Below are positions 5,205 through 11,591 of a DNA stretch of 24,480 nucleotides, piece after piece; the stretch's first letter is position 1; each line of letters begins with the position of its first letter. Made by a program: the position numbers and the translations under genes. This DNA comes from a bacterium (lineage in GTDB: Bacteria > UBA9089 > CG2-30-40-21 > SBAY01), in the NCBI GenBank assembly GCA_040757115.1, contig JBFLYA010000038.1, forward strand, positions 1 to 24,480. The letters run 5' to 3'. The notes under the pieces were generated by a model. The model was not told where the DNA came from and searched no databases. It saw nothing but the letters and a program-made list of their open reading frames with translations.

Positions 5205-6344
5205 TTAGCAACTTCTCATACAATATATTGTAGCCCATTCATATTTATAGTGCTGTATTCCTATAGCTTGAATAAGGTTATACAATTTAACCGCAACAGG
5301 CATGCCATGAAAATGTCCTACACTGATAATATTGATAAATTTATTATCTTCGGTATTTGGGAAAATTAAAGGATTATCCGTAACACTGTTTGTCTCAACT
5401 TCAAGAGCTCTACGGGTTTCCTCTATTAAATCATAACATGTACCCAATATTTGAGCGGCACATCGAATGTTATAAGGATCCTGAACCTCACCATCAATAT
5501 CAAAATCAGAATGAGCTTTGCGAATCGGAGAATCTTTCATCAGTTCCCAAACCCATTTGGAAACTTTCAATGCCCCTCGATGAGGTCTCAATTCATGAAA
5601 CTCAGGATTAAAACAGGTATCAGCCCCAAGCATAACCTGTGTAGAAATGGCTGTTATAACCGTTGCACTTTTCAGGATGTCTATCATCTTAAAATAAGCT
5701 AATATACCAAAGGCGGTGGAATATTGTACACCGTTATTTAATGCTAATCCTTCTTTCATTTCTAAAGAAATTGGAGTGAATACATTATTTGCTTTTTTTC
5801 GGTCTTTGTCTGATCCAACAAAAACATCGCCTTCGCCTATCATTGCCAGTGCAATATGAGACATGGGAGCAAGATCGCCACTGGCACCTACAGAACCGAA
5901 TTTAGGAACTACTGGAGTAATTTTTTTGTTCAGCATCTCAATAAGTTTTTTTATAACTTCGGGACGGACTCCGCTGTACCCTTGTGATAAGGATATGACA
6001 CGTAAAAACATCGCAGCTCTAACAACTTCTATAGGTGTAACATCTCCAACGCCACATGAATGGGAACGAATAAGATTATTCTGAAGTTCAGAATACCTTT
6101 GTTGAGGAACCGGAATATCAACATTATGCCCGAATCCGCGATTAAATCCATAGGCAGGTTTTGGATTCTTTATTATTTCATCTATTACATCTTTTCGTCT
6201 TTTTTCAATAATATCAAGTGCTTTGGAATCTATCTCAATTTCACTTCCATACGCTACTCGCCAAACATCATCTAATGAAACCTTTTCTAATATCCTCTTA
6301 TCTCTTACTTCTTCCGCTATAGCTTTAATATATACTTTATCCAT
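5205..6344 (-). pseudogene. aromatic amino acid ammonia-lyase (HAL/PAL family), C-terminally truncated
   Basis: Family members eliminate ammonia from histidine, phenylalanine or tyrosine using an MIO group formed from Ala-Ser-Gly. Here ASG is at 154-156 (GSVGASGDLAPMSH). Other active-site residues are kept: Tyr65 in AYGFNRGFG, His95 in RSHSCGVG, Asn204, Gln288/Tyr291/Arg294 in VQDPYNIR, and Phe345 in GHFHG. The ORF stops at 379 residues against about 500 in the family. The last 15 (from HYKYEW) look non-homologous, so the helical C-terminal region with the catalytic Glu (Glu414 in Pseudomonas HAL) is missing. The truncation ends just before the hisG promoter. A strong AGGAGG precedes the start. 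The Ser-His pair at 94-95 is more like histidine than tyrosine or phenylalanine lyases. Probably a broken gene, though a stable short protein cannot be excluded. Confidence 0.75.
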
Positions 6345-6838: not shown

Positions 6839-7996
6839 ATGAAAAAGATTCATAACAAACAAAAAAGGAAAAAAGTCAAAACCCACATTCAGAAACCTAA
6901 AGGCAGCAGGTTTACTGAAGAGGTCAAACAACTTGAACCTCAAAATGTGGGCGTTATTCCCATCGATGTCCATAAGGATAAACATCAGATTCTTATTTGT
7001 GATTACTACGGTAAAATCCTTAAGGACGAGTTCTCTATACCTAACACCTTAACCGGTGTTCAGGTTCTCTTAACTCATATCTGTGAGGTAATAGACAAAT
7101 TTAATCTCAAAAAGGTCTATGCGGTTATGGAATATACCGGCAAATATCATCAGAATTTGGCTAATAAATTACGACAACACAAAATCTCTGTTGTTTTTGT
7201 TCTCCCCAATAGCACTTACCATCTCCGTCAAGGACAGATGAATTGGGCTAAAACAGACTCTATTGATTTGTGTGCCATTGGCCAAGCATTTGTTAATGGT
7301 TGGGTATCCTCTTGCCCTCCTCTTGATGATTTCTATCAAAACTGGCAAACACTAACCCGAGCCAGACGCGATGAGGTTAATCTTCAAACTCAAGCCAAAA
7401 ACAGAATTACTGACCTCTTACACGACTTAATGCCAGGATGCCAAGAATTGTTTGCTAACTTCTGGGAACATAATGCTCCACCTGTCCTTCTATCCCTTGC
7501 TCATTCTCCAGAACAACTCCTTAACCTCAATCGCATCACCTTAATTCAACAACTCTCAAAAGCAAAAGTCCAAAAACCAGCAGAGCTCGTTGACAAACTC
7601 CATATCTGGGCTAAAAACTCTCTTGGTACATCCTCAAATCCCTCAGCCAAAATCCAGCAGCTCAAAATCCTTTGGCAACACTTCCTTAACTATCAGAACA
7701 ATATTCGTTCCTATAATATCTCCATTGCCCAATATCTGTCTCAAAATCCAGCTCTCCTCTTCCTCTCCATCCCCTGGGTAAATGTCCCCAGTGCCAGTGA
7801 ATATGCCTCTGAAATAGGACCATTTGACAACTTTACCTCTCCTAAACAAATTACCGCTTATCTTGGTCTGGCTCCTAAAAAGTTTCAGACAGGTAAGATT
7901 TCCTTTGAAAATGGCCCTATTACCAGAAAGGGTAAAAATCGTGGTCGAGCTGACCCCTACTCCCCTCCTACTCCTCACACAGATTTCAAGGTTTAA
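6839..7996 (+). pseudogene. IS110-family transposase, C-terminus frameshifted and truncated
   Basis: The N-terminal RuvC-like DEDD domain is recognisable: Asp43 (PIDVHKDKHQ), Glu98 (AVMEYTGKYH), Asp140 and Asp143 (KTDSIDLCAIG). The C-terminal transposase domain contains SIPWVNVPSASEYASEIG and ITAYLGLAPKKFQTG. The position usually holding the catalytic Ser (Q/D-S-G) reads QTG, near residue 351. After ITRKGKNRG the frame becomes implausible (RADPYSPPTPH), while the +1 frame gives LLLLTQISRFNSYYA, which fits the family better; even that ends at once. So the gene has a frameshift near 7945 and has lost its last 30-50 codons. The start is set by AGGAGG before ATG. Probably inactive. Confidence 0.8.
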
Positions 7997-8002
7997 TTCC
8001 TA

Positions 8003-8311
8003 TTATGCTCCAGATTGAACACGGCGAGCAGATAACCAGCTATTAAGTGACTTTTGGCTCTCGCCACTGTGCCGTCCCGCTATCAATCCATCAATACCAA
8101 TATGTTCGTCAAGGTCAGGCCACTCAATTGCATATCCATCTCCCAATAATTGCCAGTTTTGCCGCTCACTTGGTGAAGCATAGAATAATCGTGGATACCA
8201 GGCAAGTGGGACAACAATACGCCGTCCATCTGTCAGGTCCACTACCAATTCCTCATCTGTTACTGTGACTCCTATCGCTATAGGTTCTACTTCAAGCACC
8301 AAAGTATTCAT
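8003..8311 (-). CDS. DUF2442 family protein
   Basis: About 102 residues. The start at 8311 is preferred over 8338 because TTGGAGG lies 7 nt upstream. The body contains DLTDGRRIVVPLAWYPRL and LDEHIGIDGLIAGRHSGES, characteristic of DUF2442, a small family commonly paired with DUF4160 and suspected, not proven, to be half of a toxin-antitoxin-like module. It overlaps the upstream DUF4160 gene by 20 nt, implying coupled translation. Its last residues abut the truncated end of the IS110 element, so the extreme C-terminus may be altered. On the minus strand, cassette-like order would be DUF4160, DUF2442, then attC-like copy 2, with the IS in between. Confidence 0.85.
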   Translation of the reverse strand: MNTLVLEVEPIAIGVTVTDEELVVDLTDGRRIVVPLAWYPRLFYASPSERQNWQLLGDGYAIEWPDLDEHIGIDGLIAGRHSGESQKSLNSWLSARRVQSGA

Positions 8312-8528
8312 ACCACGCCTCCAAAAGAGTTGATTCATGCTCTACTACAAGACGAGCAATCTGATTTAGTTCGTGTCCAGGAAAACCCCGGTTTTTCACC
8401 AAGGAAACAGGAGTTATCCAAAACTTGGCGATTCGACGGTCCCGCTTTACATGAATATGGGGTGGTTCACCCTTATCGGAACTAAAGAAAACAAATCTAT
8501 ATGGGCCATCTTCGAGAACAGTTGGCAT
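8292..8528 (-). CDS. DUF4160 family protein
   Basis: A 78-residue protein with the full DUF4160 pattern: MPTVLEDGPYRFVFFSSD, then EPPHIHVKRD, then AKFWI and the NQIARLVVEHESTLLEAWYEYF tail (quoted in parts). The family's function is unestablished. Genes of this type travel in pairs with DUF2442 and are frequent in integron cassettes and genomic islands. An AGGAGA-like ribosome-binding site (8534-8539 on the minus strand) precedes the ATG. The gene starts about 80 nt after the R' end of attC-like copy 3, typical cassette spacing. Confidence 0.85.
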   Translation of the reverse strand: MPTVLEDGPYRFVFFSSDKGEPPHIHVKRDRRIAKFWITPVSLVKNRGFPGHELNQIARLVVEHESTLLEAWYEYFGA

Positions 8529-8848: not shown

Positions 8849-10102
8849 TCAGTCGCAGTGAACGAAACGAACAGTTGTCTGCAAGTGTTTGCTATCTGAT
8901 TTTGTAGATTCCTTGTTGGTTTCATATTTTATTAATTTACTTAATCTATCTTTAGTTGCTTTTTCTATCTTAGAAGCATCAGTGTCATTAAATTTAATTT
9001 TATAATGTTCAGCAATTTTCTTTAGAATAGAGTTATCCATTTCTTTAAAAACCTTATTTGTTTTAATAGCATATAAGACATAAAGTTTTTTGTTTTGCTG
9101 GACATCTTCTATGTTGATAAGGGGGGATAAGTTCCCATACAACCACGCATTTTCAGGATTGAACAGATTTTTCAGTGCATAAAGATAGGAATATTTATAA
9201 AGATTCTCCAATGTCACCACAATTCCGTTGGGATGCTCTCTTGTCATAAAAGAGGCATTTTTCTTTAAAGAATTAATATCTCTAAATGAGTAATAATACA
9301 AACCAATAGGAGATTTCTGAACATCATTTTTGCGCGGAGGATATTTATTGATATATCCGTCAGTAGTTTTAAAATCGGATAAAACAAATGTGTTGGGACT
9401 GCCTAATATATTAAATCTGAAATTCCTGATATAATCAAATGTCATTCCATCTGAACATTTTTCATAAAGAGATACTAATATCGGAAATTTTCCTATTCCT
9501 GTTCCATGGAACAATGCGCTGGAAAATATTTCGCCTTTTATTAGTTTGTAGTTATCCTTAAAATCTCGCAATCTCTTAAAATTAGTCTCTTTTATTAAAT
9601 ATGATAGCGGATGCAGCACACAAACAATATCAGCATTGAGTTTATGATATGATTTTAAGAATGAAACCCCTATATCTCTATCGTATAAGTCTTCATCGCA
9701 TATATTTTGCCCCTTCTCGCCGTTTCTGAATTCTGATGTTGTATCGTTGTAAGGAGGATTGCCTACCATTATTAAAAATGCAGAGGAAGAAATTAAATAT
9801 TTATCTCTATTAACTCCCTTTAACGAATTTGTCTGAAAAATATTATGTTGATTAAAATGTTGCTTGAGAAACTGGCAGGCTTTTAAATCACAATCCGCTA
9901 TCCGATAATTATAATTTTTGAGACCAAATATAAAAGCCCCACACCCCCCGGCACTATCAAAAACAATACACTTTTTTCCTATGTCCCTTAAGTAAGGGAT
10001 TATAAATTCATGAACCTGTTTGACAAGGACATCAGGAGTATAGTAACTGCCTAATTGAATTCTTTCATTTTTTGTTAGGTGTTCTGCTAAATGTGCTTGC
10101 AT
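8849..10102 (-). CDS. N6-adenine DNA methyltransferase (NPPY type)
   Basis: About 417 residues from ATG 10102, preferred over GTG 10111 because AGCAGGTGA is then correctly spaced. Motif order is that of gamma/alpha-type adenine methyltransferases: a SAM-binding motif I FDSAGGCGAF near residue 50 (a degenerate form of DPACGSGAF) and catalytic NPPYND near residue 117. GSYYTPDVLVKQV before motif I is the usual region X. The C-terminal half (HPLSYLIKETNFKRLRDF and beyond) probably recognises the DNA target. It follows the PabI-like gene with a 5-nt gap and should protect host sites. A palindromic site would need only one methyltransferase, so a second one beside the DPPY enzyme is notable. Confidence 0.85.
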   Translation of the reverse strand: MQAHLAEHLTKNERIQLGSYYTPDVLVKQVHEFIIPYLRDIGKKCIVFDSAGGCGAFIFGLKNYNYRIADCDLKACQFLKQHFNQHNIFQTNSLKGVNRDKYLISSSAFLIMVGNPPYNDTTSEFRNGEKGQNICDEDLYDRDIGVSFLKSYHKLNADIVCVLHPLSYLIKETNFKRLRDFKDNYKLIKGEIFSSALFHGTGIGKFPILVSLYEKCSDGMTFDYIRNFRFNILGSPNTFVLSDFKTTDGYINKYPPRKNDVQKSPIGLYYYSFRDINSLKKNASFMTREHPNGIVVTLENLYKYSYLYALKNLFNPENAWLYGNLSPLINIEDVQQNKKLYVLYAIKTNKVFKEMDNSILKKIAEHYKIKFNDTDASKIEKATKDRLSKLIKYETNKESTKSDSKHLQTTVRFVHCD

Positions 10103-10107
10103 AATTA

Positions 10108-10857
10108 TCACCTGCTGATAATCTCAAGAAGTATTTTAAGGATTTCAACAACATCATGATTGTGCCGTTTGGATGCCATTCCAAAAACCTTCATCATACA
10201 TATAAGATTTGAGATATTGGCATTGCTGATTACATATTCAAGTTTATCAGTAGGAACAGATGATTTACCAAGGAGGATTGAATAATTCCTAAATGATTTT
10301 AATGGTATGCAAAAATAAACCATTGGTTGAACACCAGTAGCATATTGTTGTTTTTGAATAGATATTTCTACTTGTGTTCCATCTAAAGTTTCAATCATAA
10401 ACAGTGTCGGCAAATTAATACTCGTTTCTTCAAAATTTATTCCATTTATAGTTAACTGTGAATGGTGTTCAACGGTTATGGCTTTTTCATCTATAAAACT
10501 TTTGTAATTACTTATTTCCTTAAGCAGGTTTTGGATTTCTTCTATAGAGACAAATTTTAATTCCATAGCCTTATAAAATATTTCCGATAATTCATAAGGA
10601 TATTTTGTTTTTCCGTTACTTCCAATAAAATGCTTGTTTGTTAATTTTGTTCCTTTTTTGCCTGCTTCAACATCGTTAATAGGGACATCATAACCTATTT
10701 GCCATTCCAAGTATGTTTGGTCATCAAAAGTCCCTTCTCTTGTCGAAAAGGTTTCACCAAAATCTAATCTATTTTGTCTTTTCTTAAATCTGAATTTGCC
10801 GGCATTAGTAGCGGGGATAGTTAATAAAATATTGTTTTCTTTAATTGCATAATCCAT
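10108..10857 (-). CDS. R.PabI-like restriction DNA glycosylase
   Basis: A 249-residue protein between two DNA methyltransferases, hence the presumed restriction enzyme. It lacks PD-(D/E)xK and HNH motifs. Its charged residues match the R.PabI layout as I recall it: Lys21-x-Arg23 (Lys30/Arg32 in PabI), Glu51 and Tyr56 in YLEWQIGYD (Glu63/Tyr68, same spacing), and His232-x2-Asp235 in RHNHDVVE (His211/Asp214, same spacing and similar distance to the C-terminus). R.PabI excises adenine from 5'-GTAC and the abasic site is then cleaved, so it is a glycosylase rather than a hydrolytic nuclease. Target specificity here is unknown. The start is supported by GGGAGAT 6 nt upstream. Family assignment is by motif memory, not by a search. 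Confidence 0.7.
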   Translation of the reverse strand: MDYAIKENNILLTIPATNAGKFRFKKRQNRLDFGETFSTREGTFDDQTYLEWQIGYDVPINDVEAGKKGTKLTNKHFIGSNGKTKYPYELSEIFYKAMELKFVSIEEIQNLLKEISNYKSFIDEKAITVEHHSQLTINGINFEETSINLPTLFMIETLDGTQVEISIQKQQYATGVQPMVYFCIPLKSFRNYSILLGKSSVPTDKLEYVISNANISNLICMMKVFGMASKRHNHDVVEILKILLEIISR

Positions 10858-10868
10858 TTTTTATCTCC

Positions 10869-11591
10869 CTATTTTATGGTATTTCTTGATTCTTTTATAG
10901 CTGTTCTCAATGCCCATTGGATTCTTTCAAGAGCAATTTTATAATATTTTTCTTCAATTTCAAAACCAATAAATCTTCTATTAAGCTGAAGACAGGCTAC
11001 GGCAGTGCTACCGCTTCCTATGAAAGGATCCAAAATTAAGTCATTCTCTTTTGTGAACATTTTTAATATCTCTTTTATAAAGTGTTTGGGTTTCGGTGTC
11101 GGATGGTCTATATATCCTTCATCAGGTTCAACCATTTTTCCTGGGGTGTCAACAAATATATCTTTATTCCAGCGAATAATTTTAGGTTTTCCTTTTTTAA
11201 AGATAAAACAAGACATAAATTTAGTCAGGCCGATTGGAGATTTAACCCTTCCTTCAGGACAATACAAGATAATCTGCCAGAAATAATTAAATGGATTGTT
11301 CTCAAATAGTCGTGGCAAAAACTTTGTGCTAAAGAATGTAATAAAAAAACTATTGTCTTTTAGAATCCTGTTGCATTCTGAAAGGACATTATAAAAAAGA
11401 CTTAAATCAGCATCGCCTCTGATAGCATCTTTTCTTAATCCATATGGTGGGTCAGTAAGCACGACATCTATCGAATTGTTTGGAATTAATCTTATCAGTT
11501 CCAAACAATTTCCACAAATTATGTTATCAATAAAATCTTCGGGATATTTAAGGTCAAATTTAATTATATTGCTGTTTTTTACCATTTTCAT
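10869..11591 (-). CDS. DNA adenine methyltransferase, beta-class (DPPY)
   Basis: A 240-residue methyltransferase with catalytic TDPPYGL (DPPY at 47-50) ahead of the SAM-binding motif DPFIGSGST (188-196), the circular order of the beta class. HPTPKP before motif I and FIGFEIEEKYYKIA after it are typical. It transfers a methyl group to adenine N6 in the recognition site. It is the first gene of the three-gene set, 11 nt before the PabI-like gene, and early expression would protect DNA before the restriction enzyme appears. The alternative start Met3 would shorten it by two residues. Confidence 0.9.
   Translation of the reverse strand: MKMVKNSNIIKFDLKYPEDFIDNIICGNCLELIRLIPNNSIDVVLTDPPYGLRKDAIRGDADLSLFYNVLSECNRILKDNSFFITFFSTKFLPRLFENNPFNYFWQIILYCPEGRVKSPIGLTKFMSCFIFKKGKPKIIRWNKDIFVDTPGKMVEPDEGYIDHPTPKPKHFIKEILKMFTKENDLILDPFIGSGSTAVACLQLNRRFIGFEIEEKYYKIALERIQWALRTAIKESRNTIK

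What the first reader, a model, noticed from the sequence alone, without database searches (positions are those of the whole stretch)
8849..11591. PabI-type restriction glycosylase flanked by two adenine methyltransferases
The middle protein has no PD-(D/E)xK or HNH motif but reproduces the R.PabI residue spacing (Lys-x-Arg, Glu-x4-Tyr, His-x2-Asp near the C-terminus). R.PabI restricts by adenine excision rather than phosphodiester hydrolysis. Two different adenine methyltransferases (DPPY and NPPY) in the same operon are unusual for a palindromic target and could mean an asymmetric site or an enzyme of changed specificity.
Basis: partly seen in the sequence, partly recalled or inferred. Interest (0 to 1): 0.75.

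Follow-up and report, generated by a model that had tools for sequence, protein, structure and literature searches.

The report
Three-gene PabI-type base-cutting defence cassette
This is a mobile bacterial anti-virus cassette whose middle gene very probably defends by cutting the adenine base out of GTAC sites instead of cutting the DNA chain; it is a known kind of enzyme, but in this branch it travels with a second, different methylase gene that one phage also carries on its own.

Summary
The 249-aa middle protein is a true R.PabI-family restriction glycosylase: Pfam RE_R_Pab1 E 1.3e-21; model pLDDT 91 matching R.CcoLI/R.PabI as the only confident PDB hits; and all 16 catalytic, AP-lyase and GTAC-reading residues listed for R.CcoLI identical. 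The 420-aa NPPY enzyme is the usual bacterial M.PabI partner (39% identity to the partner on a Campylobacter plasmid). So GTAC is the predicted target, and the 'asymmetric site or changed specificity' reading is not supported.

New here: a small beta-class DPPY methylase (M1) sits before R in all ten related loci found (R identity 71-87%), under MAG titles naming 'Deltaproteobacteria', Elusimicrobia, Atribacteria and Omnitrophota, always M1-R-M2 where the contig reaches that far, while eight other PabI systems lack M1. M1 is under strong purifying selection (dN/dS about 0.1) but broken in three loci, one with R and M2 intact, and one phage contig carries M1 without R or M2. I infer that M1 is an accessory methylase, probably also for GTAC, that protects incoming or newly invaded DNA, much as DpnA does in the DpnII system. 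That step is untested.

New variant of a known kind. In passing: a family of secreted, methylase-free PabI enzymes in Verrucomicrobia.

The parts
10869..11591 (-). M1: beta-class DNA methyltransferase, 240 aa, DPPY (47-50), first gene of the cassette; accessory methylase
   Evidence: Pfam N6_N4_Mtase E 7.4e-33; conserved in position upstream of R in ten loci; dN/dS 0.09-0.13
10108..10857 (-). R: R.PabI/R.CcoLI-family restriction DNA glycosylase (HALFPIPE), 249 aa; triad Y56 H232 D235; predicted AP-lyase K85; GTAC-reading K21 R23 E51 Q53 I54 Q171 Q177 M179 Y181 F225
   Evidence: Pfam 1.3e-21; phmmer 7cfa 1.6e-26; residue table; model pLDDT 91.3 and Foldseek
8849..10111 (-). M2: bacterial M.PabI homologue, NPPY adenine methyltransferase, 420 aa from GTG (417 aa from the ATG at 10102); predicted GTm6AC cognate methylase
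   Evidence: 39% identity over 328 aa, E 3e-62, to the M partner of R.Pab1 on a C. coli plasmid; PADLOC type II MTase E 1.6e-50; hits the partner methylase in H. cetorum and other PabI systems
10108..10111 (-). 4-bp stop/start overlap (GTGA) between R and M2, if M2 starts at GTG; same in L002, L005, L007, L008, L010, L011
   Evidence: coordinates

Best explanation
A mobile type II restriction-modification operon of the PabI (restriction glycosylase) kind. R, as a homodimer, binds GTAC, flips out the adenine, hydrolyses its N-glycosidic bond (Y56, H232, D235) and then breaks the backbone through AP-lyase chemistry using K85, so unmethylated foreign DNA receives ends that are hard to repair. M2 makes GTm6AC and is the methylase that protects the host. 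M1 is an accessory beta-class methylase inside the same mobile unit; the best guess is that it also methylates GTAC (perhaps as single-stranded or newly entered DNA) and so protects DNA before M2 has finished, as DpnA does in the DpnII system. A phage has the same gene alone, presumably to protect its own genome. Shown by computation: family, predicted fold, active-site residues, operon, recurrence, selection, loss of M1 in some copies, phage copy. Inferred: activity, GTAC target, roles of M2 and M1. The restriction-glycosylase core (R plus M2 on GTAC) I hold at about 0.9; the GTAC role of M1 at about 0.5.
For: R identity and fold. All 16 functional positions of R.CcoLI identical in the window protein and in the seven full-length cassette relatives tabulated (positions from PMC7806768). 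M2 is the bacterial M.PabI and appears as sole partner in Campylobacter, Helicobacter, Massiliimalia, Spirochaetaceae and Verrucomicrobia loci. M1-R-M2 recurs under record titles of several phyla, flanking DNA not shared, so the mobile unit is M1 to M2. M1 dN/dS 0.09-0.13, as low as R and M2. M1 is broken in L010 (R, M2 intact), L012 and L013. A phage contig with portal, major head and terminase genes has M1 at 80% identity; no R was found on its 32.5 kb and no M2 in the 8.6 kb examined around M1. In L103 a PabI homologue overlaps a beta-class methylase and no M.PabI is found in 10 kb, so a beta enzyme may serve as sole partner.
Against: No activity was measured. M1's specificity and substrate cannot be read from sequence: NCBIfam scores for PRK13699, YhdJ (PRK11524) and CcrM models lie within about 10 bits of each other and far under their cut-offs, and the M1 model is poor (pLDDT 50). 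GTAC is scarce in the host (O/E 0.31) but equally scarce in relatives without PabI, so genome composition gives no support. The phage still has GTAC at O/E 0.59, which fits protection but proves nothing.
Confidence: 0.6

Rival explanations
1. The R and M2 genes are an ordinary PabI system and M1 is a passenger methylase with another target sequence, kept for its own anti-restriction or regulatory use, for example against other restriction enzymes met when the cassette or a phage enters a cell.
For: M1 belongs to a large beta-class group common on conjugative plasmids and phages; M.EcoGIX, a beta-class orphan common on conjugative plasmids, is promiscuous and single-strand specific (PMC7736820); phage copy without R; L087 has M1 without R or M2 in the stretch held, next to a transposase.
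Against: M1 lies immediately before R in all ten cassette loci, and in 779 genomes sampled from two phyla close M1 copies were found almost only in PabI cassette loci (exception L087).
Confidence: 0.3
2. The two methylases modify the two strands of an asymmetric target, or R has changed specificity.
For: Two methylases of different class in one operon is a feature of some type IIS systems (general knowledge).
Against: All ten base-reading residues for the palindrome GTAC unchanged; M2 alone suffices in two-gene relatives; L010 lacks a working M1 but keeps intact R and M2.
Confidence: 0.04
3. M1 is needed only while the cassette enters a new host: here R precedes its own M2 in the operon, so an upstream methylase made first would keep R from killing a naive cell. 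(A sub-case of the best explanation that differs in when M1 matters.)
For: In the bacterial systems described earlier M precedes R (PMC4615327); here M2 follows R and M1 takes the upstream place.
Against: L014 has R before M.PabI with no beta-class hit, so the order does not require M1; timing of expression is unknown.
Confidence: 0.25

Closest known systems
R.CcoLI / M partner and HpyAXII (Campylobacter and Helicobacter PabI-family systems, GTAC)
   Same: Same R family, predicted fold, triad, AP-lyase lysine and base-reading residues; homologous M partner (M2)
   Different: Those systems have one methylase upstream of R; here M2 is downstream of R and a second, beta-class methylase is upstream
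R.PabI / M.PabI of Pyrococcus abyssi
   Same: Same HALFPIPE fold and triad (Y68, H211, D214 equivalents)
   Different: Archaeal genes are tail to tail with one methylase; R.PabI lacks the inserted sheet that orients the lyase lysine
DpnII system (DpnM, DpnA, DpnII)
   Same: Restriction enzyme plus two methylases in one operon; in the proposed reading the second one protects incoming DNA
   Different: Target GATC, ordinary phosphodiester cleavage; isospecificity and ssDNA action shown for DpnA but not for M1
M.EcoGIX / M.BceJIII (single-strand-specific beta-class plasmid methylases)
   Same: Small beta-class DPPY enzyme on mobile DNA
   Different: M.EcoGIX methylates SAY, which does not fit GTAC; relation to M1 is only at the level of the class

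Membership tests
R.PabI (HALFPIPE) restriction glycosylases | Sequence family RE_R_Pab1 | tested here: met
   Pfam 77.4 bits against cut-off 25
R.PabI (HALFPIPE) restriction glycosylases | Half-pipe fold | tested here: met
   Model pLDDT 91.3; Foldseek top 16 chains all PabI/CcoLI, TM 0.76-0.83 by target length
R.PabI (HALFPIPE) restriction glycosylases | Catalytic triad Tyr, His, Asp | tested here: met
   Y56, H232, D235
R.PabI (HALFPIPE) restriction glycosylases | AP-lyase lysine (K71 of R.CcoLI) with the mesophile insertion | tested here: met
   K85 aligned, insertion present; role untested
R.PabI (HALFPIPE) restriction glycosylases | GTAC-reading residues | tested here: met
   10 of 10 identical to R.CcoLI
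R.PabI (HALFPIPE) restriction glycosylases | Neighbouring M.PabI-type methylase | tested here: met
   P0001, E 3e-62 to a C. coli partner
R.PabI (HALFPIPE) restriction glycosylases | Adenine excision from GTAC without Mg2+ | not testable with these tools
   needs purified enzyme
DpnII-like three-gene system with an ssDNA methylase | R plus two methylases in one operon | tested here: met
DpnII-like three-gene system with an ssDNA methylase | Both methylases act on the R target | not testable with these tools
   M1 specificity unknown
DpnII-like three-gene system with an ssDNA methylase | Second methylase acts on single-stranded DNA | not testable with these tools
   nearest models are not decisive
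Type IIS / asymmetric-site system with two methylases | Two methylases both required, asymmetric target | tested here: not met
   base-reading residues for palindromic GTAC kept; L010 keeps R and M2 with M1 broken

The most novel reading that the evidence does not exclude
A branch of restriction glycosylases has recruited a second, evolutionarily unrelated GTAC methylase that marks single-stranded or newly entered DNA, and phages have taken (or given) that methylase as an anti-restriction gene against base-excision restriction; this would be the first two-methylase PabI system and the first phage counter to a restriction glycosylase in the literature I could search.
Probability: 0.35. Interest if true: 0.6.

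Novelty: new variant of a known kind. Interest (0 to 1): 0.45.

Why it matters
PabI enzymes are described as the restriction enzymes that work by base excision rather than chain cleavage, and the papers read here describe them mainly from Helicobacter, Campylobacter and a few archaea with one methylase each. A three-gene form in uncultured bacteria of several phyla, with a matching phage gene, widens the family and gives a simple test of how a host and a phage tolerate a restriction glycosylase.

Tried and rejected
GTAC avoidance as evidence for the system: under-represented in the host (O/E 0.31), but just as much in PabI-free relatives (0.27-0.49), so dropped. Ku-PabI exclusion: the host has no Ku match, consistent with the published pattern but weak. 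AlphaFold of M1 (pLDDT 50) too poor for a fold search. Scans of viral contigs with R and with M2, and of phage records with R, gave no relative. Flanks of the cassettes showed no shared ends or repeats apart from a 22-bp match next to M1 in L005/L006. The host species could not be named; its phylum is small in the set (19 genomes). Asymmetric-site reading rejected (see rivals).

Full report
What is there. Three genes lie head to tail on the minus strand of the window: M1 (11591-10869, 240 aa), R (10857-10108, 249 aa) and M2 (10111-8849, 420 aa). M1 and R are 11 bp apart; R and M2 overlap by 4 bp if M2 starts at the GTG, while an ATG three codons further on is where the relatives L006 and L009 appear to start. 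G+C is 31-34% over the cassette, at the low end of the window.

R is a PabI-type enzyme. Pfam RE_R_Pab1 matches at E 1.3e-21, three times over its cut-off in bits; phmmer finds R.CcoLI (7cfa) at 1.6e-26 and R.PabI at about 1e-13. Functional positions listed in the R.CcoLI structure paper (PMC7806768) were mapped by alignment: the triad Y52/H222/D225 is Y56/H232/D235, the lyase lysine K71 is K85 with the surrounding insertion, D53 and N67 are D57 and N81, and the ten base-reading residues are K21, R23, E51, Q53, I54, Q171, Q177, M179, Y181 and F225, all identical. The AlphaFold model (14 sequences, pLDDT 91.3) has only PabI and CcoLI chains as confident matches. The target is therefore predicted to be GTAC.

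M2 is the normal partner. It shares 39% identity over 328 aa (E 3e-62) with the methylase beside R.Pab1 on a C. coli plasmid and also matches the partner in H. cetorum, Massiliimalia, Campylobacter, Spirochaetaceae and Verrucomicrobia PabI loci. The literature describes almost all R.PabI homologues as next to one adenine methylase, upstream of R in bacteria (PMC4615327).

M1 is the unusual part. A scan of 84,980 species genomes with an R alignment and a search of the window's phylum gave ten close relatives, L002 and L005 to L013, L002 and L008 apparently being the same organism. In each an M1 gene precedes R, and M2 follows wherever the contig reaches that far (in L011 it is cut by the contig end, and L012 and L013 end inside R). 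Record titles name 'Deltaproteobacteria', Elusimicrobia, Atribacteria and Omnitrophota. Eight other PabI systems with an M.PabI partner (L004, L014-L016, L020, L061, L062, L064) have no M1 in the stretches held. M1 dN/dS against the relatives is 0.09-0.13, as low as for R and M2, so M1 is a working gene. Yet it is disrupted in L010 (out-of-frame deletion, R and M2 intact), L012 (in-frame loss of 49 residues) and L013 (5-bp deletion); alignment. These are MAG contigs, so an assembly error cannot be excluded for the smallest lesion. A remnant of the whole cassette lies in another Omnitrophota genome (L068). Thus M1 is useful but dispensable, and M2 is likely enough to protect the host.

A phage copy. 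IMG/VR contig IMGVR_UViG_3300021503_000005 (32.5 kb, read as L076 and L080) carries M1 at 80% identity; a search of the record found no R and the 8.6 kb around the gene holds no M2 hit. It encodes portal, major head and terminase proteins, so it is a phage. Its M1 falls among the cassette copies in a small tree with moderate support (0.81 and 0.85). CTAG and CGCG are almost absent from it while GTAC is present at O/E 0.59, which fits, but does not prove, GTAC protection.

How it probably works. R excises adenine from unmethylated GTAC and breaks the strand by AP-lyase action; M2 methylates the adenine; M1 most likely adds early protection of the same site. The closest working analogy is DpnA of the DpnII system (PMC3573125), which methylates incoming single-stranded DNA; M.EcoGIX shows that small beta-class methylases on mobile DNA can be single-strand specific (PMC7736820). 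A beta-class enzyme paired alone with a PabI homologue in L103 suggests that the class can partner this enzyme. The role of M1 is inference, probability about 0.5 for GTAC specificity.

Uninformative tests. GTAC scarcity is shared with PabI-free relatives. No Ku match in the genome agrees with the published PabI-Ku exclusion but is weak.

A side family. L017-L019 and relatives are PabI homologues with signal peptides; see the list of things noticed.

Noticed in passing
L017:4908-5720, L018:4860-5747, L019:4863-5714, L088-L101: Secreted PabI-type proteins in Verrucomicrobia MAGs: 14 of 196 genomes sampled in the order of G032 (48-72% identical to L019 apart from L019 itself) have an N-terminal signal peptide by eye, keep every triad, lyase-lysine and GTAC-reading residue of R.CcoLI (only the N67 position varies), and have no M.PabI or M1-like methylase in the flanks held. 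A periplasmic or exported GTAC adenine glycosylase that needs no self-methylation is not in the papers I could search.
   Followed up: partly
L072:3989-4654 (IMGVR_UViG_3300021503_000005): Phage contig with an M1-type methylase 80% identical to the cassette gene; no R found in the record and no M2 near the gene.
   Followed up: partly
L103:3862-5444 (minus strand): PabI homologue with Arg at the lyase-lysine position, overlapping a 286-aa beta-class methylase (DPPW) and no M.PabI in 10 kb: a different two-gene form.
   Followed up: partly
L087:1384-3201: M1-type methylase (66-68% identical) with no R or M2 in the stretch held, followed by a transposase with HTH_38 and rve domains.
   Followed up: no
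window 5205-6344 and 6839-7996: Aromatic amino acid lyase (hutH-like) gene ending early at 379 aa, matching only positions 2-334 of the 466-position Pfam model; an IS110-family transposase lies beyond its 5' end on the other strand.
   Followed up: no
window 8003-8528: DUF2442 gene with a small upstream ORF (MPTVLEDGPYRFVFFSSDKG...) that looks like DUF4160, a common small gene pair, downstream of the cassette on the same strand.
   Followed up: no
G000 (20 contigs sampled): CTAG, ACGT, GATC, GGCC and GTAC are all strongly under-represented (O/E 0.10-0.31) in the host, and mostly in its relatives too.
   Followed up: partly
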